From NCBI RefSeq assembly GCF_900090045.1, contig NC_041782.1:372001-436000 (forward strand): a DNA stretch of 64,000 bases, written 5' to 3'. The notes under the pieces are model-generated. The model did not search any database, was not told where the DNA came from, and saw nothing but the letters and a program-made list of their open reading frames with translations. Below, piece after piece: positions 34,213-61,621 of the stretch. The stretch is from Plasmodium malariae (Eukaryota > Apicomplexa > Aconoidasida > Haemosporida > Plasmodiidae). The translations under genes and the position numbers were made by a program. Positions within the stretch are counted from its first letter, which is position 1, and every line of letters starts with the position of its first letter.

Positions 34213-36212
34213 TCAAAAATATTTTCTAAAACTTTTATTGCTCCTATTTGGTTTGTTTTCTGCCTTATTTTCTGCTTTATTTTCTGCCTTATTTTCTGCT
34301 TTATTTTCTGCCTTATTTTCTGCTTTATTTTCTGCCTTATTTTCTGCTTTATTTTCTGCCTTATTTTCTGCTTTATTTTCTTCCTTGTTTTCTGCTTTAT
34401 TTTCTTCCTTGTTTTCTGCTTTATTTTCTTCCTTGTTTTCTGCTTTATTTTCTACTTTGTTTTCTTCTTTGTTTTCTGATTTATTTCCTGTTTTTTTTCC
34501 AAATTTGAATCCTGGAAATTTTGTTGGTACTTTTGAAAGAAACTTTAATTTAAAATTTGATTTATTTTCTTTGTCATCACCATCTAATACATTACCAGAT
34601 AATCCAATGTCATTTAATTCTTGCTTTTTTTCTTCACAATCTTGTGGACAATTTTCCTTATTGTCACATTCTTTACTAGTTAATCCCTTCTTTTTCATTT
34701 CATAATTGCATGTGCTACTAGCCGACAACCCATTCTTTGTTCCTTTATTTTCCCCAATGCTGCTATTCTTATGACAATATGGATTTTGATTCACCCTTCC
34801 ATTTCTTGAATCATACTTTTTATTCCACAGTTTTTTTGATTTCTTTTTTTCTGATTCATATCTTCTTTCTGTAAATTCTGATTGATCAAATAATGTTTCC
34901 ATGCTTTCCGATTTAGGATCTTCTGTTTTCAAAAATAAATTCTCCGAATTTTCTGTCTCCGATTTTTCTGTTTCTGCTTTTTCAGTCTCTGCTTTTTCTG
35001 TTTCTGCTTTTTCAGTCTCTGCTTTTTCTGTTTCTGATTTTTCTGTTTCTACTTTTTCTGTTTCTGATTTTTCTGTTTCTACTTTTCAGTCTCTGACTTC
35101 AGTCTCTGACTTTTCAGTCTCCGATTTTTCTGTTTCTGCTTTTTCTGTTTCTGATTTGTCTGTTTCTGATTTTTCAGTCTCTGATTTTTCTGTTTCTGAT
35201 TTTTCTGTTTCTGATTTTTCTGTTTCTACTTTTTCAGTCTCTGCTTTTTCTGTTTCTGATTTTTCAGTCTCTGCTTTTTCTGTTTCTGATTTTTCCGTCT
35301 CCGCTTTTTCAGTCTCCGATTTTTCTGTTTCTACTTTTTCAGTCTCCGATTTTTCCGTCTCTGATTTTTCTGTTTCTGATTTTTCTGTTTCTGATTTTTC
35401 CGTCTTTGCTTTTTCTGTTTCTGATCTTTCCGTCTCCGCTTTTTCAGTCTCCGATTTTTCTGTTTCTGATTTTTCAGTCTCTAATTTTTCAGTCTCTGTT
35501 TTTTCTGTTTCTGATTTTTCAGTCTCTGCTTTTTCTGTTTCTGATTTTTCTGTTTCTGACTTTTCAGTCTCCGATTTTTCTGTTTCTGATTTTTCAGTCT
35601 CCGATTTTTCTGTTTCTGATTTTTCAGTCTCTGCTTTTTCTGTTTCTGATTTTTCAGTCTCTAATTTTTCTGTTTCTGATTTTTCCGTCTCCGCTTTTTC
35701 AGTCTCCGATTTTTCTGTTTCTACTTTTTCAGTCTCTGACTTTTCAGTCTCTGACTTTTCTGATTCTGATATTTCAGAATCATCACATCCTATTTTACTA
35801 CATCCCCTATCTGCTAATTTACAATTCCCTCCATTACCTGATATATCAGTTTTAACTCCCACAATCTGAGATTCAGAATACCCATGAAATTCAGCTATTA
35901 TTCTGTTAGTTACAAAACCTAATATCTTATATGTGTTTCGCTTACTATTCAGGGGCTTAGTAATGGATGCCTATAAAAGAAAAAAATATTAATTCCTTTA
36001 TAAATTATATATTTTTTTATTAATAAAATATTTATTGTAATAAAAAATGGAATAACACAAAATATAAAAATATTGATTTATTATTATGATATTACATTGT
36101 CATAGCATTGAAATATCCAAATTAAAATGAAAAGTGTAAGAATTTTTATGATAACGCAGCTCCTAGATTTTCGATTCATACAATGTTCCTTTGAAATATT
36201 ACTATTTTGCAT
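34213..36212 (-). CDS. Gene A: two-exon exported-type protein with SETEK and AENK repeat arrays; frame interrupted in the repeat
   Basis: Exon 1 is 36212-36096 (39 codons): MQNSNISKEH, then a hydrophobic core CVIIKILTLFILIWIFQC. A phase-0 intron (GTAATA..TATAG, 36095-35971) leads to exon 2, 35970-34213. Exon 2 opens ASITKPLNSKRNTYKI and has RIIAE at residues 62-66, a PEXEL variant with Ile in place of Leu. From about 35770 to 34940 there are roughly 55 tandem SETEK-type pentapeptides (15 bp; AETEK and VETEK variants). A unique middle follows (WNKKYDSRNGRVNQNPYC, NKENCPQDCEEKKQEL), then about 19 AENK/EENK tetrapeptides (34480-34250). The end is RSNKSFRKYF. Near 35081-35102 the array lacks one base and, about 13 bases on, two more; total length stays a multiple of three (624 codons) but a TGA falls between. 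So it is either a fresh pseudogene or an assembly error. Predicted role: red-cell cytoskeleton-facing exported protein, by analogy with charged-repeat proteins such as MESA. Confidence 0.72.
34250..34480 (-). repeat. 12-bp tandem repeat encoding AENK/EENK tetrapeptides
   Basis: About 19 units of 12 bp near the 3' end of gene A. The distal part alternates EENK and AENK; the part nearest the stop is pure AENK. Confidence 0.95.
34940..35770 (-). repeat. 15-bp tandem repeat encoding SETEK pentapeptides
   Basis: About 55 imperfect 15-bp units (coding-strand unit TCAGAGACTGAAAAG with synonymous variants). The first residue of the unit varies among Ser, Ala and Val, the rest is nearly fixed. Many changes are third-position, so the peptide is kept while the DNA drifts. 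Confidence 0.95.
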
Positions 36213-38057
36213 TGTGAAACTATTAGATTTACCCTTATAAACTTCAAAAAATGTATAGCAATTAAAAGTATTATTTGCGTTAATTATCGTAATTTATTTC
36301 ATATATTAAAAGAATATCTAAAATTATTAAATAGTTTATACATTCAATACCTATAAAAGTACATACTATGAGATATTACAAAATATTTCTAATATATTTT
36401 TTTCGTAAAACTCCTGAAAAAATAAACTATTAAAAAAATATGAATACAATTAATGGATATTTATATATATTAAATTCATATTAAATATTTAATTATATCA
36501 GTTCAGTAATTATATAATAATTATATATCGATAAAATTAAACTGTACACATGACAAATAAAATTTTCTGATTCATTTAAATGTAAAAATAGCATATTTAA
36601 AATTACTAATATCATATGAGGTTTGGGAAAAAAAAAGAAAAAAATCTAAAATTCAATTTTAATATTACTTTCTTTATACATTATATTATGTAGTATTTAC
36701 TATTACTTAATGAAGTTAATTTGTTAACATGATTACAATATGAATTATAAGCAAAATTACAAAATAAAAATTTTTTTTTTTTTATTATAATTTAAAATAT
36801 CTAGATTTACCTATAAAAAACATACAATAACACATAATATTTTTAAATTAAAAAATATTCCATCAAATTTATATGTAACTAGTGGAACTTCTTTATAATA
36901 TATGAAAAATATATTAATAGTATTAATAATTTATTTTTCATAGGACATTTAAATTAAAAACTACACTGGAATTTTTTACTAAATGTTCTTCATAATACTA
37001 AGAAGTATTTATAATTAAAAAGAAAAAAAAAAAAATAAAAAATAAAAATAATTAAGTATTTACTATATTTTTTTTAATTGAATTACATTGTACGAATTAA
37101 CACTATATATAAAACAAAGAACATATTTGTATACATACAAAAAAAAAATACCTGCCATTAGGAACTTAGCATGTAGTAATATTATTTCATGAATTTATAA
37201 TCTAATATACAACTAAAAAAAAAAAGAAAAAAAAGAGTACACTATACTTTTATATTTTATTGTCTTCAACATTTATATTTAACTATAAAAAAAAAAAAAT
37301 AAAAACCTTCCATTTATTTTAATTTTTAAGCATAAATACATAACGTTATTTTATATTTTTGAAAGTAATAATTATAATTATTTTCAATAAAAATATATAA
37401 ATCTATTTTCTTTGTTTTATCCTTATTGATCTATTTTATTTATTTTTACTCATCTTAATTACATTCCATATTTCCTGATAATTCATTATTTCCCCCATAT
37501 ATACATAAGCATATTTACTTATACAAAAAAAATTTTTAAAATTGAATAACTATAAATTATGTATTGAAATGTGTGTATATACATAATTAAAATATATACA
37601 TATATGTTGTACAAAAAACAAAGAATGACTTTTTGAAATATTATTACAGCATTTACATTAGTTAATTACAGAAAATAGAATTTTTATGTAATAAAAAGTA
37701 AGGTTGATGAAAAGCTTAACGATAAACTTAACAATGAATTGTTTTTTTTATAAATTGTAACTTCATTTTATTCACAACATATTATATATAATTTATTTCT
37801 TGTTATTCATTCTAGGAATTTAATTAAAATTACATAAAGGTATATACCCAAAATTTTTCTTATGTAACAAAATTAAAATTTTCCTTATAAATACTATCTT
37901 TTATAAGTTATTTAAAAAAAAAAACGTAAAATAAGAAAAAATACACACCAAAATCTCATTAATAATTTGAATATATGTGCAATTGGTATAATTTATAGCA
38001 CTCAGAATTGTTTTTTAGTTAGTGTAATACTAATAATAGCTATTATTATTGTTTTTA

Positions 38058-38103
<46 letters not shown>

Positions 38104-38810
38104 ATTTTATAAAACGGTTTCTTTTAATTATGTTAATGCGTATAGTATAGAATATTATAGTCTTAATTCTCTTTATTAAAATTATGAAAATTTTCAAAAG
38201 ATAAATATACTGTTATAATATACAGTAATAATAATAATAAAGTTAGAAATTATTTTACACTATAACGTAATAACTCATGAAAATGTAACAAATTCAAAAA
38301 AGAAATTTAATAAATATGTTCATTTATTTAAAAATTTCTCGTATAAATATAGGTGTGACCTTCCAAATTTTAATGGCATATCTAATTCTCATAAACAAAT
38401 TTTAAAGTTTTCTTGTATAGGAATTGAACATATTATTTGTACTTTTACTTACTATTATTCTAATCCCCAACACATTCTAATATTGAATACTCGATTGTTA
38501 TTCTAAGGAAATATTTAATCCAATTTATCAAATTTGTTTACTCATGTGTAACTTTTTTAAATGAATATACCAAAAAAAAAAAAAAAAAATATTTCATATC
38601 TCTTTGATGTAATGGAAATTGTAGCGCATATAATATTAGCTTTTGAACCATACTGTAATCTTATTAGTGATGTTCAGTATAAATTAACAGAGCAAAAAAT
38701 TTAATAGATCAAATAAAATGAAGTAAATCATTTACAAAAAATTAACATGATAAATGAGTTTTTATTCCATTCGCTCTCTTCTTTTTAATTTTCTAGTTTC
38801 TTTTTTCTTA
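36213..38810. other. Intergenic spacer upstream of gene A
   Basis: A+T-rich, no gene seen. It includes the presumed gene A promoter and a long (TA)n run at 38062-38103. Some stretches resemble the region upstream of pseudogene B (for example a TTTTCTGATTCAT motif at 36567-36579 and at about 43093-43105), consistent with the tandem duplication reaching beyond the genes. Confidence 0.5.
38062..38103. repeat. (TA)n microsatellite, longest in the window
   Basis: About 20 uninterrupted TA units. Confidence 0.92.
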
Positions 38811-38814
38811 TTAT

Positions 38815-39170
38815 TATTAATTAAAATATTTATATACACGTTGGATAAAATTTAAATCATACCAAAACTTATAAAGTTGACATAAATATTTACTAATTAT
38901 TCATAGATTATATAAAAGACACCAACTGTATTTTATACTTCCCTTTTCCGTTCCATAAAATGGGTAATAAGATATAATTTTCAAATAATTTCTATTTGTT
39001 TATATGGTTCTTATATATATTTATATTCCTTAATAAATCTATTCATATTATTCCTAATAGACATATAAGTTGCCAACTCATTACACTGAAAATAATGGAA
39101 TACCTATTTAACCCATTACGATAAGATTGAGGAAAAGTTATATTAACCTATTTATATTATTATTATAATT
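38815..39170. repeat. Diverged duplication, copy 2 (downstream flank of pseudogene B)
   Basis: Partner of 32290-32640, offset about 6.5 kb. It shares the CCCTTTTC, CCATAAAATG, AACTCATTACACTGA and AATGGAA landmarks in the same order and spacing. The offset equals that between exon 1 of gene A and exon 1 of pseudogene B (6493 bp). Confidence 0.75.
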
Positions 39171-39174
39171 ATAT

Positions 39175-40078
39175 ATATAAATTTTGTTACATTATAAATA
39201 CTTAGTTCCTTTTTTTATTTGGTTATTATTTAAGATAGAGTAAGCACATTTATACTATATATAACGTCCTATAAATCTTGTCCCAATAGTATTTTTCTTA
39301 AATACAGCAAAAATTATCAATATATGTAAAATAAGGTGCATATTATCTTATGAAATTTACTATATTTATGTATATTTCTAATTAACTTTTTTAAATTTTC
39401 ATTATCAGAATAACTTATATCATCAGAATAGTTTAATAATAAATGAAATTAACAATTCTTTTTCATCTAAAAAATTATAGAATACAAACAATTTATTAAA
39501 ATAATAAATAAATAATTAATTCGTACAAAAAAGGATATCTCACTGTATCCGATAATTCCATTTTTAAGTAGTGTAAAAACGTTATAAGTTTATCAATAAT
39601 ATGTTTTTAAGAAATATATTTTATAATGTGTTTGTCTCAACACATATGATAAAAAATACTTATTACAAATGTACTTGGAATAGAAACAAATGACTTCCGC
39701 AAAAAAAAAAAAAAAAATACATTCTGTTTTTTTATTAATTCAAAATTACAACATTCCTATGTTTAATAATGCTCAAAGAACAAATATCTTACTATTAAAG
39801 ATTAAAATATAGATCAAAATTAAAATATAAATGTATTCAATAAAGATTAAAAATTTTTATAGCAACATATCAATACATATTAATTAAATAATATGTACAT
39901 TCGTAGATTAACAAGCATTTATACGTAAATTTTTTACATATATATAAATACTTAAATTGATGTGTACATCTTAATATTTCTTATAATTATACAACATTAT
40001 TTGAAATACTTATAAAAAAACAATATATATATTAAGGCAGAGGTAATTAATATTAAATAAGTACATTAAAATAGTACA

Positions 40079-40114
<36 letters not shown>

Positions 40115-40490
40115 TGTAAATACGAAGCACATGTAATTATGATGTTATGTTTCAATATGTATGTGCATGAAGAGCTACAAAAATTAAGAAATCACAAAGA
40201 TATATGTTTAAAGAATATGAAGTGCCATCTGATATTATACCTTAGCATACTGTATTTTAATGCATATTTTATTATGTTCTTTTACAACCTTTTTATTTGA
40301 TTTTATAAACTACTTGTAAATGTATAAATAACTAAAATATTAGAATAAGATAAAAATAAATAGAATATACAGATACGCCTTATATATGTTCTAATTAGTT
40401 CATTACAACAAATGTTAAAAGGGATAATATTTCATCAAATTTTGTTTTCCTATAATATCTTTTTTTTTATACCATACTTTAAAAAAAAAT
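39175..40490. other. Intergenic spacer downstream of pseudogene B
   Basis: A+T-rich with a (TA)n run at 40082-40111 and a poly-A run near 39701-39717. Nothing gene-like seen. Confidence 0.5.
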
Positions 40491-40499
40491 TTATATAAA

Positions 40500-42705
40500 T
40501 TTCGGCTTATTTTCTTTGATTTTTAATTTTCTTTATGCATGTTCTAATTTTTCAAACTATTTTGTTCATTTCCATCCAAATCCTTATTATCTGAAATTTT
40601 CTTTTCCAATTTTGCATTTTTTGATTAATGATTATTTTTATCACTTGAGTTATGTTCTAAGTTATCATCCTTTAGTTTACAATTGTTTTTATCTCTTGAC
40701 ATACTTTCTTTTATTTCAGAATTCATTAATTCATAAATCTTGTGGTTTCCATTTATCTTGTCTTCTAACTAATCATTTTTTGGTTTAGAATTATTTTTAT
40801 TATGTGATAAATTATCTTTTAATTGTCCATTCGGTAATTTGGAATGTTTTTTATTATTTGATGCCTCATAATCTAATCCTAAAGGCTGTGAATCATAATT
40901 CTCGTTATTAGCTATTTTCAAACTTCCGAAACCTACGATTTTAGGTTTATAATTCTTTTTACTATCTGATAAATTATTATTTATTTCATTTCGTAATTTA
41001 GAATTCTCTTTATTATTTAATGTCTCATTTTTTAATCCTATAGAATGTGAATTATACTTCCCTTTATTACTCGCTTTCCAATTTCCTAACCCTATAATAT
41101 TAGGATCATCATTTTTTTCAATGTTTGATATTTTATATTTTTCTCCTCCATTTGGTAATTAGGAATTTTATTTATTAACTGATGTTTCATTTTCTAATCC
41201 TTTAGAATGTAAATCATAATTCTCTTTATTACACGAACCCTTATTTTCTTATTCTTTAGGACGTAATTCGTAACCTCTATTATGATCTAGTTCATTCCTC
41301 TATTCCCCTAAAAACTGAGTATCATAGTTATCATTATAATTTGGCAAAATTCTTCTTTCACCTACAAATTGGGGATCTCACTTATTATTATAATATGGAA
41401 ATTTTCTTCTTTCATCTTCAAAATGTGAATTGTAATTATTACTATTATTTGGCAAATTTCTCCATGCTCCTTCAAAATATAGATCATGATTATTATCACA
41501 ATGTAGAAAAGCTCTTCTTGCTTCTACAAACTGTGGATCGTAATTTTTATTATCATGTGGAAAATTTATTCTTCCTACTTCTAAATATTGATCGTAATTA
41601 TTATTATTATTATTATTTTGTGGCATATTTCCCCTTCCTCCAGAAAAATGAAATTTGTAAACTACTTTATAATCTGATAAAAAAAATTTTGCTTCTGTAA
41701 GCTGGGATTCATAACTTTATCTACAATCTAATAAAATTTTCTTTATTCCGTCAAATTGCAATTCATAATTATCTTTATAATCTGACAAATATTTTTTTAC
41801 TTCCTCGAGTTGTTATTCACCCTTGTCTTTATATTCCAATAAGTATTTTTTTCCCTCTTCCAGTTGTGATTCACCCTTATTTATACATTCTGATAAATAT
41901 TTTTTTACTTCGTCCAGCTGTAATTCACCCTTTTATACTCTGAAAAAAAATTTTGAACTCCTTATACATGGGATTCATAACGTTCCTTGCAATCTGATAA
42001 AAGTTTTTTTTACTCCATTAAATTGTAATTCATAAAGCCCTATAAAATTCGGTATATTTTTCTGTTCTACAGGACATACTTCGTACCTCTTTCTATTACT
42101 TGATGAATTCCTAAGTCTACCTGAGAATTGGGGAACATAATTGTTACACTGATTTGGTAAATTTATTGTTTTTCGTACATTTCGTAATTCATATTATAAC
42201 CCTCTAAAATTCTTCTTCGCACAAACTGTGACTTATACTTTACAATATTACTCAACTTATTTCTTAATTCCCTATTATATTTGTTATCTCCTATAAATTC
42301 TGTTATTCTTTTAGGTTGTGCTTTAATAGTATCTTCAAATAATTTTAATTTTCTAACGATTTTATAATTTAATATGCTATATACGTTATATCCCTTATTT
42401 AAGGATTTACTATTGGTTGATTGAACAAGAAATAGATCTATTTATTATTTTATAAAACACTTATTTCTAATCTAATAAATTTTTTTTTTTTAAAAGATGA
42501 GATGCAAATCAGCAGTAAAAAAAAAAAATAGAATTAATAAAAAAAAAAAAAAAAAAGATACAAAAATAATTGTTCAATAATGTTTTTATATTATTACATT
42601 ATTGTAATACGGATATATCCAAGTTAAAAGGAAATACGTAAAAATTTTTATAATCAGTTGAAAGTTAATATTCGATTGCACACACCGTTTCTTTGATGTA
42701 TACAT
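40500..42705 (-). pseudogene. Pseudogene B: paralogue of gene A with an 18-residue repeat array
   Basis: Exon 1 is 42705-42598 (36 codons): MYTSKKRCVQ, then hydrophobic LIIKIFTYFLLTWIYPYY, ending at a phase-0 GTAATA donor just as in gene A. Exon 2 starts near 42440 with STNSKSLNKGYNVYSILNYK, which parallels gene A's SITKPLNSKRNTYKILGF. After two or three frame changes, a repeat array runs from about 42060 to 41250 in a near-constant frame, with 54-bp units such as KGESQLEEGKKYLLEYKD and NYDPQFVEARRAFLHCDN. The frame then stays readable to about 40500 (LGNWKASNKGKYNSHSIGL; GLDYEASNNKKHSKLPNGQ; YELMNSEIKESMSRDKNN). Stops are single-base (TAA, TAG or TGA), around nine to ten in the last 1.1 kb, far fewer than random A+T-rich sequence would give. 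It is a fairly young pseudogene created by point mutation after duplication with gene A. Confidence 0.78.
41250..42060 (-). repeat. 54-bp tandem repeat (18-residue unit) in pseudogene B
   Basis: Roughly thirteen degenerate units. The consensus shape is N/K-Y/G-E/D-x-Q-L/F-x-E-x-K/R-K/R-x-L-L-x-Y/C-x-D/N. Early units are Lys/Glu-rich (KKYLSDYKD), later ones Arg/Asn-rich (RRAFLHCDN). Confidence 0.8.
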
Positions 42706-44580: not shown

Positions 44581-44599
44581 GTGCACGTATTATCCTTTT

Positions 44600-46450: not shown

Positions 46451-46459
46451 GTTTTTTTC

Positions 46460-47825: not shown

Positions 47826-49083
47826 TCATTTCATATACATACGTTTTAATTTTTTTTTTTTTCTCTTTCTGCCTTTTAATTTTTTAATATAATAAGAAGT
47901 TAGTACAAATGATATGACACTCAATATAATGGGAACTATTACATATTCCATAGCAGATAATGCTACGCTACCAACAAAAAATAGCGTTGATAAAAACGGT
48001 ATTTTTTTTGAAATTTTCTTGTCATGTTTTTTATAATACGCGTCAAAATGTTTTTCTATATCAGAATTTTTTTTTTTCACTAATTTTCCTTTTATATGGT
48101 CATAATCATTATTCTTTGTAACTGTGTAAAAATCTTTCAAATGGGATATATCTTTATTTTTAAAAGATGTGTGTTCATTGTCAATAATCTGTGAATAATA
48201 ATTATTATCATCATCTTCATCATCATCATCTTCATCGGACATATAATCATCATTAGGATGTGTGAAATACATTTTATCATAATTTGGGAAATTAGAATAT
48301 TCGAAGGATGGGTAATCATTTCTTTCCGCATGAGGATAATCATATCGTTGCGTCGGAGTATAGTTATTTCGAGGAGAAGGAGAACAGTCATTACGTTGCG
48401 CGAGTGAATAATTACTTCCTTGCCAGCTTGAGTAATTTCTGTTTTCAAAGTTTGGGTAATTGGCATCTTCAAAAGATGGATCATCATCACCATCAAATGG
48501 TGAATCATCATTATCTTGGAAATTTGGACAATTACCATGATTATAGGATGGGAATTTATTACCTTGAAAAACAAAATAATTAGGACTTTCAAAATGAGGA
48601 AATTTCTTCTGATCATAATATGAATTCGTTAATTGTCGTACATTGTGAAAATAATCAAAGTCATTCTTGTTGATTCCATCTGTTATATGTTCACAAAAAT
48701 CATCGTTCATGCTTTGAAACTTGCTTCCAACTTCTGCTAAGGATCTGTTATCTTTAAAATTTAATACATCCTGGACTTTACATTGTTTGTCTAATAAGAT
48801 TTTATTGATGTTCTAAAAAATATGATAGGAAACAACATTAATATAATATATTTGTTTTTATATAACATATTAATTTTTTAACTTAAAAAAGAAAAAAACT
48901 TTATAAAATATTAAAAATAAGTACAAAAAACAATGTAAAATTTCTTGCAAGTAAAATTATTACATCATCAAATAAAGGTTCCAAATTCCATACTGAAGCA
49001 ATAAGCAAAAATGCTTTCGTAAAAAATGATGACATAAACATACTAATTTCCCCCTTCTTACTGTACCCTCTTAAAATTCCCAT
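47826..49083 (-). CDS. Gene C: intact two-exon PEXEL protein with 8-residue repeats and a C-terminal membrane region
   Basis: Exon 1 is 49083-48964 (40 codons): MGILRGYSKKGEISMF, then hydrophobic FFTKAFLLIASVW, ending at a phase-0 GTAATA donor. Exon 2 is 48812-47826, giving about 368 residues in total. Exon 2 begins NINKILLDKQCKVQ and carries a canonical PEXEL, RSLAE, at residues 63-67, cut by plasmepsin V in proteins sent to the host cell. From about 48560 to 48270 there are 24-bp units (8 residues) such as NYPNFENR, NYSLAQRN, NYTPTQRY and DYPHAERN, then an Asp/Glu run (EDDDDEDDDNNYY). A Lys-rich spacer (KKHDKKISKKIPF) leads to two hydrophobic segments (STLFFVGSVALSAMEYV; PIILSVISFVLTSYYI) and a strongly basic tail (KGRKRKKKKLKRMYMK). 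No stop or shift is seen. Likely exported and membrane-anchored in the infected cell; function unknown. Confidence 0.87.
48270..48560 (-). repeat. 24-bp tandem repeat (8-residue unit) in gene C
   Basis: About ten degenerate octapeptides built on N/D-Y-x-x-x-x-R/E-N. A plus-strand open frame across 48308-48583 and a second minus frame at 48616-48137 are shadows of it. Confidence 0.8.
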
Positions 49084-50330: not shown

Positions 50331-50332
50331 AT

Positions 50333-50491: not shown

Positions 50492-50779
50492 CTTAAAAGA
50501 AACGTTTATATTAAATTTTCTTCTATGAATAAGGTTAGAGATATATAGAAATTGTTTTTTCTTTTTCTTTTATAAGGAATTTTGTAAGACAAATTTATAT
50601 TTATGTTACATGGTATACATGTGTATATAACATTATCATGTAAAACTGCGTTCTTACATGTGAACAAAGTGTAATAAAAAAATTTACTTCACATCATTAA
50701 AAATATGCATTTTTCCTAAAATATAATTATTTATATTTTAATATTTTTTTTATAGTTCTGTACAATCGCCTTTTACTCT

Positions 50780-51331: not shown

Positions 51332-51537
51332 ACGTTTCTCTCAATTACTTATAATATATTATCTTTATTTATAGTACAACTCTATGAACAAATTAAACTA
51401 ATATAAAAATATGAAATATTGAAATATATATATAACTAATGTATATATAAAAATATAAATCAATACTTTTGCAAATATTTTGTATGGTTACATATGTATT
51501 TCCACATTATCTACACAATTATTTATCAATAAGAAAA

Positions 51538-52150
51538 ATGTCCTTCAAACATGATTTTTCTGGAATAAAGGTAAAAAAAATAAATGTACATTTCAGAATA
51601 TTACTAGTAATATTCATTATTTTATACTAACTTTTCTATTAAAACGTGTGAATTGGTGTGATAATTTAAAGTTCAACAACAAATTTAAATATCTTAAATA
51701 ACATATACATTTTAATTGGAATAACTTATAAGCACATAATATTATAATATATATAATAAGGGGATTAAGAATCCAATTTATATGAAAATAGAATAACATT
51801 TGTTCCTCTAAATACGTTAAGTTACAAGAGTATTAGCTCAAAAAATTAAATATTTTAGTAATAATTGAAATGTAATATTTTCTATATTTAAGAGAAGGGT
51901 ATAGGTGTATTAAACCCTGAAAACAAAAATAGCTATACAATTTTCTCACCAGAAAAAATGGTAGCAAAAAAAGTTTTAACATTCATACAGGTGGATTTTT
52001 TCTTCGACATTAATTCATCATACATATGTACAAAATAATTAGTGACATATATGTATTAGTCAGATTGATGTGAAATTTCGCAGGAAAAAAAAACTTAAGT
52101 TTATTAAAATCATATATACAAGCTTTTTCATACTTGAGAAAGTAATATAG
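51538..52150 (+). CDS. Possible small three-exon gene on the plus strand, unassigned
   Basis: Three protein-like pieces in order have compatible phase-0 joins. 51538 onward reads MSFKHDFSGIKVKKINVHFR, then a hydrophobic LLVIFIILY, with a possible CTA|GTAATA donor at 51606. 51895-51990 reads KGIGVLNPENKNSY, then TIFSPEKMVAKKVLTFIQ, bounded by AG and CAG|GTGGAT. 52064-52150 reads IDVKFRRKKKLKFIKIIYTS then FFILEKVI and a stop, after a TCAG acceptor. Spliced length would be about 80-85 residues with a basic C-terminal part. The middle piece has a composition (G, P, N, S, E) very unlike spacer. It may be a real small gene or the remains of a larger one. Confidence 0.32.
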
Positions 52151-52159
52151 TACAGAACC

Positions 52160-53800
52160 TTTTAACTTCTCTACTTACGATATTTTGCTATTGCTATGTA
52201 CATTAAAAAAATAATATAAGCGCAAAAATACTATACATAAAAGCAATTATTTAGTTTCTCTAATACAACTAAAAAGAAAAAATATATATATATTATTGCT
52301 CTAATTTATACTTATTTTTACGAAGTTCAGTTCCATATCTTCTTGCATATTATTATGTTATATATACATATTGGCACATTCCATAGAAGATCACTATTTT
52401 AAATTATTTATACTTTTAACACATAAAAAGAATTAATTGACATATATTTTTATCTTGTATTTAACTATTTAATTTTTATTTATTAAGGTCTCTCTGTTAA
52501 TAATAAATAAAGAAATAAAAATTACAAAATTTAAAATTTATTTTATTTTTTGTTTTTCATAGAACTCTACCTCTGCACTAAATAGTTCTTAACGATCAAA
52601 CAAAATAATTTAACTCAAAAATTACCTTTTTTTTCCGTTTAAAAGGATAAGAAAATGGTAAAATATAATTAAAATATGTATAATATAATTTCACTCAAGA
52701 ATAATAAAAATTTACTTGATCACATATTTACTGTTTTTTTCTTTCATAAAAAAACATAGATAAAATGTGAAGTTATATTTTAATAAAATATTCATTTACA
52801 TATTAAAAATTTTGCATATTTTTTTTTTTTGGACCTTACATATAAAAATTATGAAAAAAAAAAAAAAATTTCACTAAATTGATAATATTTTATTTATTTT
52901 ATCAAAGAAAAAATTGTGTACGTTTATATTTTAACTAAAATAAAATATATAAAAACTGAGGATTTATGGAAGTACATTTTTTTTCAGAAAGAATATAAAC
53001 ATTTATTAGACATTAATTAAATTATGAAATGAAAAACAATTTAAATATAATGATTATATTTAAATAAAATTGTTACTACAAAATTTAAGTGTAATTAATA
53101 TAATCGTTATAACAAAATTTCGTAGAAGTTTAATTGCACACCTTAAGATTGCTGCGCAACGCTGAAAAAAGAAAAAGGAAAAAATTTATACCTTGAAAAA
53201 TTAAAAGAAAATATAAATATGGTAAAATGATTATTTATTTTAAATTTGTGTGTGTATATATATTGTTGTAATATGAAATACGGAGTTTTCGTAAAAGACC
53301 CTAAAAAGATGAATCAAAAGATTTTTACTTCGTAATAAATTCTAAATCACTAATTCAAAATTTCAAAATATACGTGAAATATTTCTTTTTCTTTTTTTTT
53401 TTTCATTAAACATATATATATATATATATTTTTTTTATTATATATTATTATGCAGCTTTCTGGTGAATTAATCCACTTTTTATCTACTTTTTTAATTTTT
53501 TTAAAGATAGAGAATAAATTTTCTTTTAAAAATATTCACCTTTTTTTTATCAAATGGATCATTTATATAATTTAAATATGCAAAATAAAAGTTTATTGTT
53601 TTAAAAATTATTTTTCTGAATAATGTAAAAAACTCCAAATAATTAACGAATACCACTAATGCAGCTCAATAAAGTTTAAGTAAATATGCAGAAAAAAGTA
53701 CTCTAAAATTATTTTTAAATTGTGTACTCATTTTATCATTACCCTGTTTTGAGATATTATTACATGCTACTATATTTTAATAATGCAGCTTATCTGCATT
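52160..53800. other. Intergenic spacer with a G+C-rich patch
   Basis: A+T-rich with several poly-T runs. At 53134-53163 there is a 30-base patch near 50% G+C. On the minus strand it is preceded by TTTTTCTTTTTCAG, a near-perfect splice acceptor, and reads RCAAILRCAIKLLRNFV. No partner exon found. Confidence 0.45.
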
Positions 53801-53817
53801 ATCGCGATTTGTTTTAT

Positions 53818-54380
53818 CTAAAAGAGTCTAAATTCTATTTTTATTTTTTTCAGATTCTTATTCACCATATCTTCCACAATATCAAAAAAGTTTTTCTTAT
53901 ACATATCAAATAATTTATTGCATTCATTTAATGGTTCTAACAATCTGTTTTCCTTTGAGTTTGTTAATTTTCCTATGTTGTTAATATTGCTAATGACATC
54001 ATATCTGTACTATAAATTATTTAATAATAACATATATTAAAAAAATGTTATATTTTTATTTTCTCATCCAGTATATTGTCACAATGCATATATATATATT
54101 TATGTTTGCACATATACATATATAAGATAACGTATATTCCAAATCATGGAAACCTTTTCTTAAATTTATCTTATTATAATATCGTCTTATCTATATTAAA
54201 ATAGTAAATATAGAAATTTTTTAAAAAGGAAGAATAATTACCTTATCTCTGATATTATCTTTATTTTTTTATAATTTGTCCCCTCTACATATATTACTTA
54301 TATTTTGTATATGTTTCATACAGGTGCTAGTAGTTGATTTACTTTAATTCATTTTGCACTTTTTTTTATCATTAAAAGTT
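53818..54380 (-). pseudogene. Relic E: decayed paralogue of gene D
   Basis: 54009-53818 is a 63-codon block after a TATAG acceptor. It reads YRYDVISNINNIGKL, then SKENRLLEPLNECNKLFDMY and KKNFFDIVEDMV, ending RLF-stop. Gene D reads ASRLLAQPSVEFDTVFNMY then EKNFLDKMG at the same distance from its intron, so the two are homologous. Here the PEXEL is eroded (RLLEP) and the protein stops before any repeat or membrane region. A possible exon 1 remnant lies at about 54350-54242 (STTSTCMKHIQNIS, one TAA, NKDNIRDK, then GATAAG|GTAATT), but it lacks the hydrophobic core. Confidence 0.6.
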
Positions 54381-54399
54381 GTTAATATTTTTAAAAAAT

Positions 54400-56990
54400 G
54401 CAACTTCGCAAAAAAATAATTACAATTATTATAAATGTACTAACAAATGAATAATATTGTTGAATAACTCATTCGAAAATACTATCTATAAGACGTATAT
54501 TATTTAATTATTACATATAAGGAAATTTACATAATAATTACTAACAATTTAGTGTTAATTATATTTGATACTTATTTAAATATAGTGAATTATTACAACA
54601 AAATAAATTCTTTTCTCATAATAAATTATAATACTTAATTATTTTAGTAAAATTTAAGGATAAAAAAAAAATAAAAAATTTATACTTATAAAAATATATT
54701 TTTTCAAAATAAAAATATTAAAGAATACTGTTATAATCGTAATTTTAGTCCAAAAATAAAACTATATTAAAATAATGTTGTCTACTTTAAATGCTTTATT
54801 TATAGCAATTAAGAAGAATTATTTCACGAATAGCTAAGTAAAAAATGACCGGTACATCATAAATGAGGAAATTTTTTCTTTACTTTTTTTGTTTTTGTTA
54901 CTTCATAAAACATTTATTATTAATAATAATGTATATAACAATATTAATATTAATACGTCTAATTTTATATAAGAATAAAAAATATGTTCTTTTTTAGATC
55001 TACAGTAAAATTTATGTGTACGAAAAATATATAAATTTCAAGGATAAATGTATGTTAATGTAAAAGGGATTAACAATTTAAAATATAAATTATTACATTT
55101 AATGTAACTAAATGAACCATGCAAACAATACTTTCTATTATGTAACAAATTACCTTGAATTTTCATAATTTAATTTGAAAATAAGATTACTTCTTCCATT
55201 AACCTTATAAAAAGAAAACAATAATATGCATTAAAAATTCATAAAAATTTATAATTTTGTAACTTATGAAAAGAGTAATTGCTTCCGTATGGTTGTAAAC
55301 AACAATTTTAAAGCAAAATATTACCAGTTTATATATATTTTATTTTTTTTTAATTTATAAATTATGTGAAAATAAAAATTATATTTACCATTCTTATGAC
55401 TCCATAGATTTATGATATTTTAATTAAATTAATAAAGAAAAATGACACCATTTTGTAAAAAAAAAAAAATGAGAAATTGGGAACACTACTAAAAATTGCA
55501 AAAAATCTGGAACCATTCTAATGTATGCAGTAAATATGAAAAGTTGTAACATACGTCAACAAAAAATATTTTCAATTTAAATTAGTAATTTCCATAGTAA
55601 ACTCTTTATTTAAATTTGTAAAGAATTCAGGCAAAAATTATCCTTTGTATTTTAGTTAAAAGAAAATTACTAATAGCTAGATGATATATAAGTTAGAATA
55701 AAAAACAGAAAAGAAGAAAGATATTTTTTCTTTTTATTAATATATATTTAGTTATTTCTGCTTTATGTATCGGAGTTTACTTAATGCTTATAGCAAATAT
55801 ATATAACAGCCCATTCTTTATAACTATTTTTTTAATTTATAGCAGAAATTAAATTTTATATATAAAATTCTTTTTAAATATTGCTTTCATTTCAATTATA
55901 TTCTATTTTAAATTCATAAAATAACATAAATGTTAAATTATATATTGCTTCTTTTTTTTTTTTACTTTTATTATGCATTATCGGTGCACATTATTGTTCC
56001 GCATTATAATATGAAGTCTAATCTTTTTATTTTCATAATAAAAGATAAGATTGTCAAACAAAATAAAATAAATAATTAAATCTTGTATATATTATAGAAA
56101 ATTTTAGTGCACATCTTATAATCCCCCAGATAATGAACTTAGAAAAAGTTGCGCAAAAAACATTTAAGTAAAAAAAGTTAAACAGAATTAGTGTAATTTC
56201 AAAAATCTACCTTGTTATTAAAATTTTAGACCCAATTTTTGTAGACTCTTCTATAACCATATAACAACTATTAAAAAAAAAATTGTTAGTAACAATAATG
56301 AATTTTAAGCTATTGTTAATAAGGCAATAAAGTATACACTGTAGAATTCTTTGACCAAAAAATTTATATATTATACGTGTATAAAATAAATAAATAGAAT
56401 AAATGAACATTTAAAGATAAATTAAAAATTAGTTTCACTTTTTTCAAAAATATAAAGTAACACATCAGTTATAATGTATAGTTAAGCATATAACGATTAA
56501 AATGTATAAATGAAGTATTGCAAATTCATTTATTAAAACAAAAGAACAAGAAAATATATATTTCTTCAAATTATTGCATCATACAAATATACATATATAT
56601 AGGCAATTAAAATGTATTATAAGTAATTATGCTACTCACTCTTGAATAATGCAATCATACGTTCAACATGTATATATAAGATGTTATATTAACAAATATA
56701 ACTTTCAAACATCATAAAAAGATTAATAATATCAATATTTTCTTAGTTTTTCCTTTTCATTGTACTTCATAATAAACGAAGTCTACATACTAAAATCAAC
56801 AATTTATAAGAATCGTTAAATACAAATATATATATATATTATTACTCAAATTTCAAAATACCAGTTCTGAATCTACATTTTTAATTAGTTTAAGCATGAG
56901 AAAATTAAATGATCTAAAAAATATATTTATTATTTCGTAATTAGTCCGTGCCTTCCAACTCCCAATGTATATTTAACACTGAGATAAATC
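54400..56990. other. Intergenic spacer
   Basis: A+T-rich. A plus-strand frame at 55471-55580 (IGNTTKNCKKSGTILMY) and a minus-strand frame at 56410-56207 ending MVIEESTKIGSKILITR before a GTAGAT site look slightly protein-like but stand alone. Confidence 0.4.
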
Positions 56991-56999
56991 CCATAAAGA

Positions 57000-57430
57000 T
57001 ATGTAAAAAAATAAGACTATATTATCCATGAGCAATAATAATAAGTATAGTTATAAAACTTATATAAGTATAACCTAATTTTATAAATGTACAAGAATTT
57101 TCTTTAATTATATTATTAATATTATAATATTTTTTTTGAGCTTTGTGTACCAGAATTTCTACACATTTAATTTGTCTATCATATGATTTTGAGTTTAGCT
57201 GATATTCTTTATCATAGCTCTCCCATTTCCTCTATTTAAATATGACTTCGAAGAAGCCTTATTTTTAACACATTGCTTTTCAATTCAATTTATTTTATTT
57301 AAAAGGTTTTCTTTTATAAAGATCACGCATTGCATCGGATTCCATCAGTTCTGCTAATAATCTATTTTTGTTCATATATATGTTGCCGTTTCCTGGATGT
57401 CCGTGTTACTTATTACATCATTATATGCGT
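57000..57430 (-). pseudogene. Relic F: decayed PEXEL protein, likely of the gene D family
   Basis: Near 57400 the minus strand reads HPGNGNIYMNKNRLLAEL, then MESDAMRDLYKRKPFK and a stop. RLLAE is a canonical PEXEL, and the MRDLYKRKPF that follows parallels NMYEKNF in gene D and DMYKKNF in relic E. The rest is scattered over frames: KQCVKNKASSKSYLNRGN, then ESYDKEYQLNSKSYDRQIK, VEILVHKAQKKYYNINN and a hydrophobic end GYTYISFITILIIIIAHG. At least two shifts and several stops. The terminal helix suggests the ancestor was membrane-anchored. Confidence 0.6.
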
Positions 57431-57439
57431 AGTACTACA

Positions 57440-60400
57440 TATTATTCTAATAGTTCAAATTAGAAAAAAAAAATTATACGTTTTTATTTCTGAATAATAG
57501 AATTTATAATTTTATATATATATATATATATAAAAGCATATGTAAAATTAAATAATAGAACAATGTTTTCGCTCCCATTAACTTTCGTTGTTCGAATTAT
57601 GTTTTGTTATACATAATAACAAAAGGGTCGATTGTGAAAATTCAAAAAAAGGAGAAATTTTATCCTATTCTTGCATCTTTTTTTCTTTTTTTATCCTTCC
57701 TACAATCTTATTAAAATATCTTTTTGTAACATTTTGCACTGGTTTGAATTTTATTGTAATGTTTAATTTACTATAGCGCATACTCATTATTTTTTCAGTA
57801 TCTTCTAGAGTACTAGAAATAGATAATATATTTTTAGTAAATAAAACTATAAACAAATTTGCTACTTAACATTCTATTTTAGTTTAATGCTTTATATTAA
57901 AAAACTTTATGTGTACTTCAATGTTACAACTAGTAAAAAAGCACAAAAATGCAAAAATAGGAATTGTGCAAAATATATGTTATTATTAACTCGTTTAATT
58001 TTATTTTTAATATAATTAAAAAAATCTTTATAATAAAAATGAATTTTTTTTTCTGAGAAAAAGTTATAATACTAAGAAATTTTAATGAAAAATTAAAAAA
58101 ATAATAAATGACTAAAGAAACCAAAAAAAAAAAAAAAGAAAAAAAACGTACTTGTTTCCGCCATAAAATAAAACTAAATTATTTTAAATCAAAATTAAAA
58201 AAATAGAAATACATTAATTACAATTATAATAACATTATTAACTTATATAAAAATAATATTTCTATAATTTAATTTATAATAATATATATATTATCCTTTA
58301 TTCTCAATAACGATAATAAGAAAAAAAATTCAGAATATGTTTTATACGAAAAAGTATTGTAAATTTGTGTATTTATTTTTAATTTACAAAGCACATTTGA
58401 TATTTACATAAGTAATTAACATAATTACCTTTTATACTAGTGTAATACATTAATACATTTTTTCAAGATTATGTGCGTAAAATTAAATGATTCTATATTT
58501 AATATATAGTTAATAAAGGATAGTGATTTTTATATATTTTTCTTTAAATATTATCATATGCACCTAATTTAAGCATACTAAAAATAACACCAACGATTAT
58601 TACAATTAGAAAAAAATAAATTATAAAACTTTTAAAACACCCCTATTCTTTATTATTATAAACAAAGTTTTATATTATGAAAAATTAACTTGTCATAACA
58701 ATTGCTATATTTTTCTTTATATAAAGCATGTATGTGTTTATATATTTATTCGAGAAAACGAATTTTTCCTATTTGCACATTTTACTGTTTTAAACCTTTA
58801 GAGGTGAAAATGGAATCTCTAAACGGATATATTAAAATAAATAGGGTTATTTTTAACATTTGCAAGACCATGGTAATTATTCTAATTTCTATACTAAAAA
58901 TACACTAGAACGTGTAATTAATGTATGTATAAGAAGATTATATTTTAAAATAGCATTTAATAAATTTTTAATACAGCTCTACTTTTAATTTCCTAGTAAA
59001 ATCTTAATTTATACTTAAATCTTTTGATAGCACAAATGTTACCTCAATTAGTTTCGTTAAATGGCATTACTGAAAAGCTTTAGACATTGTCTACATTTTA
59101 ATTTACATATGTTATTACATTACTCATCTCCATTTCCACATACATGCATATATATATATATATGGATGGATGGATATATAGTTATATATATATACATTTA
59201 TAGATATAGATAGATGTAGAAGAACTGTAAAGGAGTATTATTTTTAGTTATTTTTTACTGCTTAATTTTTATTAAAAAATTATATATAATATATATTGAA
59301 CATCGTAATTTTAATTAATCAACGTCCCCGATTAATCTTAAGAAGGATCAAAAAACAAAATTAATATAAAGCAAAATTTTTTTTTTACCATTCTACTTGC
59401 TCGGTTATATGTTGCCTCATCATTTTATTTCAAATAATCCATAGTAAATTAAAACTAAAATTAGCTTATTTCTTTTTAATGTAAAAACTTAAGAAGCGCA
59501 TAACTCTTGTAATGCTAGCAAAATTAATGATTATATCATATATAACAAAAAATTAGTTTAGCACATGTTTGGTGCGCCCCTAAAGGCGTTAAAGTATATA
59601 ATGTAGTATGAATACGTAAATTATTACTTTCTTTTCAAAGATTAACTTTAGAATATAATTCTAGAAGTATTTATTAAAAAGTTTTAAATACCTAACTTGT
59701 CATATTTATACAGTATTCCAAAAAAATAATAATTTTATTTGTCTTTTTGAAAACAAAAATGACTTGTATTTAAATATATTTTAAAAGGATTTGTAAAAAT
59801 CTGACATTCAAATAACCAATTATTTGTGAATTTCAGAAAATAACATAATGCTTTTAAGATAAAAATATTTTATGTTTAAATTATGTTTAGTTATATAACT
59901 CATAATTTCACAGTTTAATACTAATGTATGTATATTTTTTAAAACAAAATTCCTATGTACATATATTATATATATATACAACATATACATTATATACCCA
60001 TAGATATTCATAGAAAATATTTAAACATATGTATGTATGGTATATAAATACATATATAAGTATATGGGCAAAAACTATTGAATAAAACAAAAAAAAAATT
60101 ATAATATAGAAATTATAATTGTTATATGAAAGAATATTACTATCATATAACTGATGAGAATATAATAAAAAAAAAAAAAAAAATGTCAAAGATTTGGATT
60201 TTTCACTTACATAAAAAAAATTGAAAAAAAGCGTTAATCGGATATATTTGTTAAACTCAGGAATTTCATAAGGTTTCATTCCAATGCACTAAGGAAATTT
60301 TTTATAAAATTAAATTCATTTTAAGAATATTTTTTTTTACAATTGCATTATTATATAGCCTTTCTTTAATTAAGCTAATTCTTGGATTTGTTTTTCCAAT

Positions 60401-60450
60401 CCATTTATTTGTAAATAAAATAAAATAAAATATGAGTAATGAAGATAACA
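57440..60450. other. Intergenic spacer with small islands
   Basis: A+T-rich. Islands: minus-strand 57810-57665, reading STLEDTEKIMSMRYSKLN and KFKPVQNVTKRYFNKIV, protein-like but unassigned; plus-strand 58810-58872, reading MESLNGYIKINRVIFNICK before a GTAATT site; minus-strand 60279-60208, reading MKPYEIPEFNKYIRLTLFF before a GTAAGT donor; and a hairpin-forming G+C patch at 59561-59588. A TA/GGAT-rich tract lies at 59150-59220. Confidence 0.4.
59561..59588 (+). other. Two adjacent G+C-rich hairpins (possible structured RNA or regulatory element)
   Basis: 59561-59575 can pair GCAC with GTGC around a 7-base loop; 59576-59587 pairs GCC with GGC around a 6-base loop (CGCC with GGCG if the shared C is used). 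The 28 bases are about 60% G+C in a region near 15-20%. No Pol III box or known RNA family was recognised. Confidence 0.3.
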
Positions 60451-60451
60451 T

Positions 60452-61621
60452 TTATTGTTTTCTCAAAAACTGATTATGAATATTTCTAAGAGTCCAACAT
60501 AAATTTACTGTTTTAGTAAATAATATGGTTAATAAGAGTAGTGAAATCTTGTATTTCCCAAAACACACTGATAATAATGTGCTCACTGATATAAACGATG
60601 GAGTTCTCAAAAAGTCAAAATAGTTTATAAAATTCCTAATCCATCTACACTTATTATTTGGACATTCGACATTTTGATCAGGTACATTTTCATTCTTTTC
60701 TTGAACTTCGGAATTAGCTTCTTCTGTGTTTTTTTTTTCTATCCCATTTATATATGAAGGAGCGCAAGCAATAGGATTGGGCGATGGCATCACGTTTGGA
60801 TTGGGCGATGGCATCATGTTTGGATTGGGCGATGGCATCATGTTTGGATTGGGAGGTGGGAACATATTTGGATCTATGTTTTTTAATATATTTGAGTCTA
60901 TGTTTCGTAGCATATTAGGGTCTATGTTTCGTAGCATATTGGGGTCTATGTTTCGTAGCATATTGGGGTCCATGTTTGGTATTTTACCTGGGTTTTGTTC
61001 ATATTGTTTAGCTAAGGATGACATATCTAATTGATTAAAATATGACCTCATCATACCTTTAATTTGATCCTTTTCATTACTGTTACATCCCATTTTGTCT
61101 AAGAAGTTTTTCTCATACATATTAAATACTGTATCAAATTCTACAGATGGTTGTGCCAGTAATCTACTAGCTCTTAAATATGTTTTTCTTCTCATGTTGT
61201 CAGTGTCCACTTCTTCATTTTGACTAAACTAAAAATTATTGTAACGTATTACAGCAAGTTCAAAATAAAAAAGTATGAGTTGAAATAAAAAAAGAATTAA
61301 ATAACTAAATAATAAAATATTATTTTTATATTTTCAATTTAACAAAATCAGTGCTATACATATATCGGTATATACAACAATGAAGTAACATGAGATCTTA
61401 ATTTTTTTTATTTATTAAATTACTTTATTTGAACATTGTGTTATCCATAATAAAATGGTAAACAGAAAAAATTTACATAAGGAAACTGTTCTTATTATTA
61501 TTTTATCTATATTATTAACATTTTTTATTCTTAATCTTTCTACATCCTCACTTATATAACTTTTAATTATACATTTTTCTGATTTCTGTATTGCTGTAAT
61601 AATTGATTTACTAAAAATCAT
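60452..61621 (-). CDS. Gene D: intact two-exon PEXEL protein with two Pro/Asn octapeptide repeats and a C-terminal hydrophobic region
   Basis: Exon 1 is 61621-61424 (66 codons): MIFSKSIITAIQKSEK, with a recessed hydrophobic segment at residues 46-63 (VSLCKFFLFTILLWITQC) and a phase-0 AAA|GTAATT donor. Exon 2 is 61228-60452 after TTTTTAG, total 324 residues. It begins FSQNEEVDTDNMRRKTY and has PEXEL RLLAQ at 88-92. A conserved block follows (VFNMYEKNFLDKMGCNSNEK), then LDMSSLAKQYEQNPGK. Repeats come next: DPNMLRNI-type units (five, about 60860-60975) and PNPNMMPS-type units (four, about 60770-60860). An acidic linker (NTEEANSEVQEKNENVPDQ) and a Cys pair (ECPNNKC) precede the hydrophobic end (STLLSVCFGKYKISLLLLTI). 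No stop or shift. Likely exported to the host cell; function unknown. Relics E and F are its paralogues. Confidence 0.88.
60770..60975 (-). repeat. Two adjoining 24-bp tandem repeats in gene D
   Basis: The first set encodes DPNMLRNI (five units, the last two changed to DSNILKNI and DPNMFPPP). The second encodes PNPNMMPS (four units, one with Val). The antisense strand is open across both (60726-61034), a composition effect. Confidence 0.92.

What the first reader, a model, noticed from the sequence alone, without database searches (positions are those of the whole stretch)
34213..61621. Cluster of same-chassis exported genes, each carrying a different in-frame minisatellite
Genes A, B, C and D share one layout: hydrophobic exon 1, phase-0 GTAAT intron, a PEXEL or PEXEL-like site early in exon 2, then a repeat. 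The repeats differ completely: 15 bp SETEK plus 12 bp AENK (A), 54 bp (B), 24 bp N-Y-rich (C), 24 bp DPNMLRNI plus 24 bp PNPNMMPS (D). This suggests a locus where export-competent scaffolds repeatedly gain new low-complexity domains. The layout and repeats are seen directly; the common origin of A/B with C and D is inference.
Basis: partly seen in the sequence, partly recalled or inferred. Interest (0 to 1): 0.8.

Follow-up and report, generated by a model that had tools for sequence, protein, structure and literature searches.

The report
Exported malaria proteins with changing repeats
A chromosome-end stretch of the malaria parasite Plasmodium malariae holds genes for proteins probably sent into red blood cells; they are not one family, but one of them and its next-door sister show how the same protein base can carry different repeats.

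Summary
The window is P. malariae chromosome 8, near the subtelomere/core border. One shared chassis for all four is not supported: the layout is the rule for exported Plasmodium genes, and the genes fall into three groups. A/B carry a Fam-L/Fam-M-type leader (A 49.4 bits, cut-off 34), with repeats where A's Fam-L/M body would be. D is a Pv-fam-h (probably Hyp16) gene with a 40%-identical P. ovale orthologue. C is an orphan with a weak LSA3-like C-terminus. The core idea does hold for D and a sister gene E just outside the window: same PEXEL region and following block (39% identity), but an 8-residue array in D and 10-residue arrays in E. The P. ovale orthologue already has a degenerate 8-residue PNM period, and E's first units include PNMLENF against D's PNMLRNI, so part of the repeat turnover looks like growth from an old seed; E's large array has no shown source. 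Known in kind (EKAL/KAHRP, GARP); new for this family as far as my searches go.

The parts
36096..36212 (-). Gene A exon 1 (39 aa, hydrophobic, Fam-L/M-type leader)
35971..36095 (-). Gene A intron, 125 bp, GTAAT donor, phase 0
35086..35970 (-). Gene A exon 2, first open stretch, closed by an in-frame TGA at 35086-35088
35890..35904 (-). Gene A PEXEL-like site RIIAE (not canonical); aligns with RLLAK of a Fam-L/M gene
35818..35970 (-). Gene A stretch after the intron that aligns without a gap to the Fam-L/M leader
34941..35775 (-). Gene A 15-bp SETEK array, about 56 copies
34213..35085 (-). Gene A downstream open stretch in the same register as the first
34252..34499 (-). Gene A 12-bp AENK array (24-bp higher order), about 21 copies
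42598..42705 (-). Pseudogene B exon 1 (36 aa), Fam-L/M-type leader, GTAAT donor
40483..42428 (-). Pseudogene B remnant of exon 2, stops in all three frames
41727..41932 (-). 54-bp array in pseudogene B, 3.8 copies
41321..41607 (-). 54-bp array in pseudogene B, 5.3 copies
40789..41232 (-). 159-bp array in pseudogene B, 2.8 copies
48964..49083 (-). Gene C exon 1 (40 aa)
47826..48812 (-). Gene C exon 2 (328 aa), intact; P. brasilianum orthologue P0004 99% identical
48732..48746 (-). Gene C PEXEL RSLAE
48270..48605 (-). Gene C degenerate 8-residue (24-bp) N/Y-rich repeat
47886..48002 (-). Gene C C-terminal hydrophobic part, weakly LSA3-like
61424..61621 (-). Gene D exon 1 (66 aa)
60452..61228 (-). 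Gene D exon 2 (258 aa), intact; Pv-fam-h-like
61151..61165 (-). Gene D PEXEL RLLAQ
60986..61144 (-). Gene D conserved block shared with E and the P. ovale orthologue
60779..60970 (-). Gene D array: eight 24-bp units, DPNMLRNI type then PNPNMMPS type
60494..60595 (-). Gene D C-terminal hydrophobic part

Best explanation
The cluster is a subtelomere/core-border neighbourhood of exported-type genes from three lineages, each with the standard export module (signal in exon 1, phase-0 intron, PEXEL). A/B have a Fam-L/M-type leader, D (with E just outside) is a Pv-fam-h/Hyp16 gene, and C is an orphan. Proposed mechanism, as inference from known families: plasmepsin V cuts at PEXEL, PTEX carries the protein into the red cell, and the C-terminal hydrophobic part of C, D and E anchors it in a host-cell membrane such as Maurer's clefts, as reported for the probable relative PTP5. 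The stretch between the PEXEL-proximal block and the anchor is disordered and tolerates length change; in-frame repeat units there expand, contract and are replaced by slippage or unequal crossing-over. In D/E at least part of the repeats grew from a short PNM-type repeat already present before the P. ovale/P. malariae split. Shown: gene structures, relationships, period and seed comparison, one-unit difference between two P. malariae sequences. Inferred: export, location, disorder, the slippage mechanism and any function of the repeats.
For: D is named a P. malariae exported protein of unknown function; its P. ovale relative is 40% identical over the full query and named Pv-fam-h. E shares PEXEL region and block with D (leader plus 60 residues z 19.0, exon 1 alone only z 3.9; 39% identity, E 9e-21; C-terminal parts z 6.9), and D and E were the only two genome matches to E's first 143 exon-2 residues. 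A second P. malariae sequence has one more PNPN unit. Lag-8 periodicity: D z 12.2, P. ovale z 6.2 (0 of 1000 shuffles each); E first segment lag 10 z 7.3 (0 of 1000), with PNMLENF against D's PNMLRNI (0 of 2000 shuffles). A leader matches PF12420 at 49.4 bits, cut-off 34, with a 79-residue gapless alignment to a Fam-L/M gene, z 10.5. Controls: 2 PHIST and 1 TryThrA leaders have no PF12420 match. 7 of 7 strong arrays have periods divisible by 3.
Against: No expression, export or localisation data. The slippage step is not observed. E's large second array (QPSTSTFE type) shows no resemblance to D's PNMLRNI unit (1110 of 2000 shuffles do as well), and D's other unit type PNMMPSP gives no support in any of three comparisons (534, 530 and 1112 of 2000); PNMLRNI against the P. 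ovale linker is modest (41 of 2000) (all). D's own N-terminus gives no PF12420 match. E and P. ovale C-termini match only at z 2.5. A structure prediction of D was too poor to use (mean pLDDT 39.5). Segments for the repeat tests were picked by eye.
Confidence: 0.7

Rival explanations
1. One reading: A, B, C and D are copies of one local scaffold that repeatedly gained new repeat domains.
For: Same layout, same strand, same neighbourhood; weak cross-matches such as A-D z 4.0, A-E z 7.3, C to the P. ovale D orthologue z 5.0; C N-terminus to PF12420 15.3 bits, E 0.014.
Against: C-D z 0.3, B-D z 1.0, B-E z 0.4; after the leader the nearest relatives are different families; the layout is generic: 93% of 396 predicted P. 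falciparum exported genes have a phase-0 first intron (PMC1431722, passage).
Confidence: 0.12
2. Only a generic layout: unrelated exported genes sit together because subtelomeres collect them, and repeats arise everywhere in such proteins; nothing specific to this locus.
For: Two PHIST genes elsewhere in this genome carry arrays (84 bp + 24 bp in L005, 69 bp in L007); an LSA3-like gene on C4 too (39 bp); published precedents GARP and EKAL (PMC5207086).
Against: D/E and A/B are related neighbours, so part of the cluster probably grew in place.
Confidence: 0.4
3. The leaders of A, B, D, E, Fam-L/M and the LSA3-like gene descend from one export-leader exon that spread by duplication or exon shuffling; bodies and repeats came later.
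For: K-x8-W in 11 of 13 leaders compared, with 7 to 9 residues from W to the donor in A-E, L024 and the LSA3-like gene; PF12420 leader match also in the LSA3-like gene, 35.0 bits, and the P. ovale D orthologue, 31.6 bits, but in none of 3 PHIST/TryThrA leaders; 14 of 260 scanned exons stand apart at score 16.6 or more, the next at 8.7; exon shuffling was proposed for exported genes (PMC1431722, passage).
Against: Short hydrophobic stretches converge; 9 of the 14 were in the training set; C ranks 26th of 260; D's own leader has no PF12420 match; some pairs are near zero (B-E 0.4, A-P. ovale 1.8).
Confidence: 0.35

Closest known systems
Pv-fam-h / Hyp16 (P. falciparum PF10_0023, PF10_0025; probably PTP5)
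   Same: D: 40% identical to a P. ovale protein named Pv-fam-h; two exons, PEXEL, C-terminal hydrophobic part. Hyp16 and pv-fam-h cluster together in print (PMC3747859, passages).
   Different: Larger in-frame arrays in D and E than in the P. ovale protein; P. falciparum members not compared directly. That PF10_0025 is PF3D7_1002100 (PTP5) is recalled.
Fam-L / Fam-M (PF12420), P. malariae
   Same: A and B leader: exon 1, phase-0 intron with GTAAT donor in A, post-PEXEL stretch.
   Different: A's match stops at profile position 79 of 223; repeats follow instead of the body with transmembrane parts, and I see no hydrophobic tail in A.
EKAL-domain proteins (KAHRP, PfEMP3) and GARP
   Same: A conserved N-terminal block followed by repeats that differ between relatives (PMC5207086: abstract, passages, section 14).
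   Different: Other domain. A's SETEK array is acidic (net -44) and its AENK array about neutral (net +1), unlike the lysine-rich targeting repeats. EKAL not searched here.
LSA3 (liver stage antigen 3)
   Same: Layout; C's last 80 or so residues resemble those of an LSA3-like gene on C4 (E 2e-4 as a single comparison, made with the P. brasilianum orthologue).
   Different: Genome-wide E only 0.09; the name LSA3 for the C4 gene is recalled, not tested.

Membership tests
Pv-fam-h / Hyp16 (gene D) | Full-length similarity to a named Pv-fam-h protein | tested here: met
   P0003, E 1.3e-57, 40% over 100% of the query
Pv-fam-h / Hyp16 (gene D) | Two exons, phase-0 intron, canonical PEXEL | tested here: met
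   RLLAQ, 195-bp intron
Pv-fam-h / Hyp16 (gene D) | Direct match to P. falciparum Hyp16 proteins | not tested
   No such protein among the 3 hits; only literature clustering
Fam-L/M (gene A) | Leader matches PF12420 above the cut-off | tested here: met
   49.4 bits, cut-off 34
Fam-L/M (gene A) | Body of PF12420 (positions 80-223) with transmembrane parts | tested here: not met
   Match of the first 112 residues ends at profile 79; neither later piece matches PF12420; so A is not filed as a Fam-L/M member
Fam-L/M (pseudogene B) | Leader matches PF12420 above the cut-off | tested here: inconclusive
   Exon 1 24.6 bits, E 2e-5, below the cut-off of 34; the exon-2 remnant gave no match
Fam-L/M (gene C) | Leader matches PF12420 above the cut-off | tested here: not met
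   15.3 bits, E 0.014
LSA3 (gene C) | C-terminal membrane region similar to LSA3 | tested here: inconclusive
   E 2e-4 single, 0.09 genome-wide; 1 of 2000 hydropathy-keeping shuffles (window 10) as good, 7 of 2000 at window 5
PEXEL-exported proteins | RxLxE/Q/D early in exon 2 | tested here: met
   C, D and E (RFLSE); not met by A (RIIAE) or B
PEXEL-exported proteins | Export into the red cell | not testable with these tools
   No expression or localisation data
PHIST | PRESAN domain PF09687 | tested here: not met
   38 matches in the genome, none in C8:372001-436000

The most novel reading that the evidence does not exclude
One export-leader exon type (K-x8-W, then 7 to 9 residues to a phase-0 intron) underlies Fam-L/M, the LSA3-like gene, Pv-fam-h/Hyp16 and A/B but not PHIST or TryThrA. 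P. malariae's large Fam-L/M families then arose by joining this old leader to a new body, and gene A is a sister product in which the same leader heads repeats instead.
Probability: 0.3. Interest if true: 0.6.

Novelty: new member of a known kind. Interest (0 to 1): 0.42.

Why it matters
D, E and the P. ovale orthologue give a small series in which a seed repeat, its lengthening and a change of unit length can be read on one conserved block. That makes the question of how exported Plasmodium antigens get their repeats directly testable. The Fam-L/M-type leader on a repeat protein gives a lead on where the Fam-L/M families, which are large in P. malariae, came from.

Tried and rejected
One scaffold for all four genes: rejected on pairwise scores with two kinds of shuffle. 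Gene C as part of the leader group: not supported (26th of 260 exons; 20 of 254 decoys at or above it), although it has the K-x8-W spacing. Relation between the non-repeat later part of A and the three frames of B: none seen (68, 82 and 73 of 200 shuffles as good). Orthologues of A: 13 candidates, none at E 0.001; a full-length one may exceed the length limit or be annotated as a pseudogene. Other Fam-L/M leaders on long repeat bodies: among the rows listed (150 of 927 candidates scored) no open frame exceeds 341 aa, which does not exclude short repeat bodies. Solved structures for D and C: only weak matches, best E 0.026 and 0.019. Structure of D: mean pLDDT 39.5, not used for a fold search. 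PHIST leaders as controls: my exon finder gave models for 3 of 8 loci, and the 2 with a PEXEL were used. tRNA and Rfam scans of the window: nothing. Upstream DNA comparison of A-E: the script failed and was not repeated, so similarity of promoters is untested.
Full report
Setting. The window is C8:372001-436000 of a 33.6-Mb genome. Gene D is identical to a protein named as P. malariae on a contig of 2,818,518 bases, the length of C8, so this is P. malariae, and C8 is taken to be chromosome 8. At the left edge lies the 5' part of a clag gene (PF03805). Right of the window come gene E, a tryptophan/threonine-rich antigen gene (PF12319, 128.7 bits) and, from about 461 kb, long open frames that I take for core genes; the two of them tested gave no Pfam match. 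The published genome describes about 40% of P. malariae as subtelomeric, with the large exported families fam-l and fam-m there (PMC5326575, passages).

What is there. A, C and D have a hydrophobic exon 1, a GTAAT donor, a phase-0 intron and an export-type site beginning at residue 22 or 23 of exon 2. C (RSLAE) and D (RLLAQ) are canonical PEXEL; A (RIIAE) is not. B keeps a good exon 1 and donor, but its second exon is broken by stops in every frame (30, 40 and 116 in 648 codons), so B is a pseudogene. A is closed by an in-frame TGA at 35086-35088 within the SETEK array, and the open frame goes on downstream in the same register. This is either a damaged gene or a sequencing fault in a long repeat; I cannot tell which. 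Of the four, C and D are intact here.

Are the repeats more than chance? Yes. The 7 distinct arrays with TRF score of at least 100 (8 of 45 rows) all fall in A, B or D, and all 7 periods are multiples of 3. In C, TRF finds none, but residues 8 apart resemble each other far beyond shuffles (z 8.7, 0 of 1000). D's two arrays are one run of eight 24-bp units in a single register.

The layout does not show common origin. In P. falciparum 93% of 396 predicted exported genes have a phase-0 first intron, and in 90% it lies between signal and PEXEL or late in the signal (PMC1431722, passages). Pairwise tests of leaders with hydropathy-keeping shuffles gave: A-B z 10.9; D-E 17.2; D-P. ovale 30.3; E-P. 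ovale 15.2; A-Fam-L/M 10.5; B-Fam-L/M 6.9; C-D 0.3; B-D 1.0; B-E 0.4; A-D 4.0; A-E 7.3; A-P. ovale 1.8; C-A 3.1; C-B 2.9; C-E 2.6; C-P. ovale 5.0; P. ovale-Fam-L/M 7.2; D-Fam-L/M 3.2; LSA3-like with A 5.4, B 5.0, P. ovale 5.2, Fam-L/M 3.9; PHIST and TryThrA rows all 0.9 or less. So there are three groups, A/B, D/E and C, with a faint wider resemblance.

A and B. The first 112 residues of A match Fam-L/Fam-M (PF12420) with 49.4 bits (cut-off 34), profile 2-79 of 223; B exon 1 gives 24.6 bits, and the open remnant of B's exon 2 none. A aligns to a Fam-L/M gene (L024) over 79 residues without a gap, through the post-PEXEL stretch. From there on A has SETEK repeats, a non-repeat part and AENK repeats; neither exon-2 piece given alone matched PF12420. 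In the genome the later piece of A mostly matches other places through its AENK array; some broader, low-complexity-looking matches (for example residues 38-232, E 7e-8) were not examined (150 of 262 candidates scored). A is therefore Fam-L/M at its head only and fails the body test for membership.

D and E. D's P. ovale orthologue (40% over the full query, 47% in the alignment) is named Pv-fam-h. The cluster hyp16/pv-fam-h is published (PMC3747859, passages), and Hyp16 comprises PF10_0023 and PF10_0025 (PMC1431722, passages). PTP5 (PF3D7_1002100, PEXEL RLLSE) co-localises with a Maurer's-cleft marker and is described as essential for PfEMP1 trafficking (PMC5829233, passages; PMC5508133, one passage). 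That PF10_0025 and PTP5 are one gene is recalled; one search for both names found no paper. From 0.5 to 3.1 kb beyond the right end of the window lies E (exon 2 L026:498-2789, exon 1 2956-3066, minus strand). D and E are the only two matches to the first 143 residues of E's exon 2. E has the same PEXEL region (RFLSE) and block as D (39%, E 9e-21), a related exon 1 (z 3.9 on its own) and a related C-terminus (z 6.9 with D, 2.5 with P. ovale). E carries a 10-residue P-rich repeat and then a 30-bp array of about 31 copies (QPSTSTFEDP type).

Where the repeats come from. The P. ovale orthologue is not repeat-free: its linker has a degenerate 8-residue period (z 6.2, 0 of 1000 shuffles), as has D (z 12.2). 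E's first repeat has period 10 (z 7.3) and contains PNMLENF, close to D's PNMLRNI (0 of 2000 shuffles as good). Against this: PNMLRNI matches the P. ovale linker only modestly (41 of 2000), D's other unit type PNMMPSP finds no support in P. ovale, E's first or E's second repeat (534, 530, 1112 of 2000), and E's second array does not resemble PNMLRNI (1110 of 2000) (all; segments chosen by eye). Reading: a short PNM repeat existed before the P. ovale/P. malariae split and before the D/E duplication, was lengthened in D, changed unit length in E, and was followed in E by an array of unclear origin. A second P. malariae sequence differs from D by one added unit, so the number is still changing.

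Gene C. Its only database relative at E 0.001 is a P. brasilianum protein, 99% identical, with the repeat length unchanged; the P. brasilianum genome is given as 97.3% identical to P. malariae's (PMC9671904, passage). Its last 80 or so residues resemble those of an LSA3-like gene on C4 (E 2e-4 as a single comparison made with the P. brasilianum orthologue, 0.09 genome-wide; 1 of 2000 shuffles at window 10, 7 of 2000 at window 5). This is a lead only; the name LSA3 for that gene is my recollection.

A wider leader type? Of 13 leaders set on their W (A-E, the P. ovale orthologue, the LSA3-like gene and six Fam-L/M genes), 11 have K nine residues before it. From W to the donor there are 7 residues in A, B, D, E and the Fam-L/M gene L024, 8 in C and 9 in the LSA3-like gene. 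Against 254 other hydrophobic exons, A, B, D, the LSA3-like and the P. ovale leader are each equalled or beaten by 8, E by 9, the Fam-L/M leader by 3 and C by 20; the decoys still contain true Fam-L/M exons. With a matrix from 12 leaders, 14 of 260 exons score 16.6 or more and the next 8.7; 9 of the 14 were in the training set, and C is 26th. PF12420 also reaches the LSA3-like leader (35.0 bits, just over the cut-off) and the P. ovale leader (31.6), weakly E (17.9), but not D, two PHIST leaders or a TryThrA leader. This is suggestive of one old leader exon, not proof.

How it works, most likely. Signal in exon 1, cut at PEXEL, carriage through PTEX (established pathway, not tested here), C-terminal hydrophobic part as anchor in C, D and E, and repeats as length-variable segments that I take to be disordered. 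The prediction for D has its best confidence (60-65) in the block after PEXEL and about 30 across the repeats, too low to use as a model. Published work shows that repeat expansion can create targeting sequences and that one domain can bear unrelated repeats in different proteins (PMC5207086: abstract, passages, section 14). A's SETEK array is acidic (net -44) and its AENK array about neutral (net +1), so a lysine-rich targeting role is not evident.

Verdict. Observation partly confirmed, interpretation partly supported. The phenomenon is known in kind; D/E and the Fam-L/M-headed repeat gene A are new instances as far as I saw. That rests on paper searches whose listings were capped (20 of 273 papers, 4 of 4, 10 of 12, 15 of 175, 10 of 103); none of the listed titles or abstract openings reports them.

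Noticed in passing
L026:498-3066 (C8:436498-439066), outside the window: Gene E, sister of D with the same PEXEL region and block but a 30-bp array of about 31 copies.
   Followed up: yes
window 606-2162, minus strand: 5' part of a clag gene (PF03805), presumably continuing left of the window.
   Followed up: no
window 26161-26526, minus strand: Fragment like the C-terminal part of Fam-L/M (PF12420, 26.4 bits, below the cut-off).
   Followed up: no
L005 and L007: PHIST genes with large in-frame arrays of their own (84 bp and 24 bp; 69 bp), so repeat gain is not special to this locus.
   Followed up: partly
L044 (C5:93000-94100): A Fam-L/M copy in which exon 1 and exon 2 read as one open frame without the usual intron.
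   Followed up: no
L031:2569-3957: Tryptophan/threonine-rich antigen gene with degenerate K/D/E-rich repeats ahead of its conserved domain.
   Followed up: no
L029, exon end near 5674, minus strand (about C8:357674): Another exon with the K-x8-W leader motif left of clag; what follows it was not analysed.
   Followed up: no
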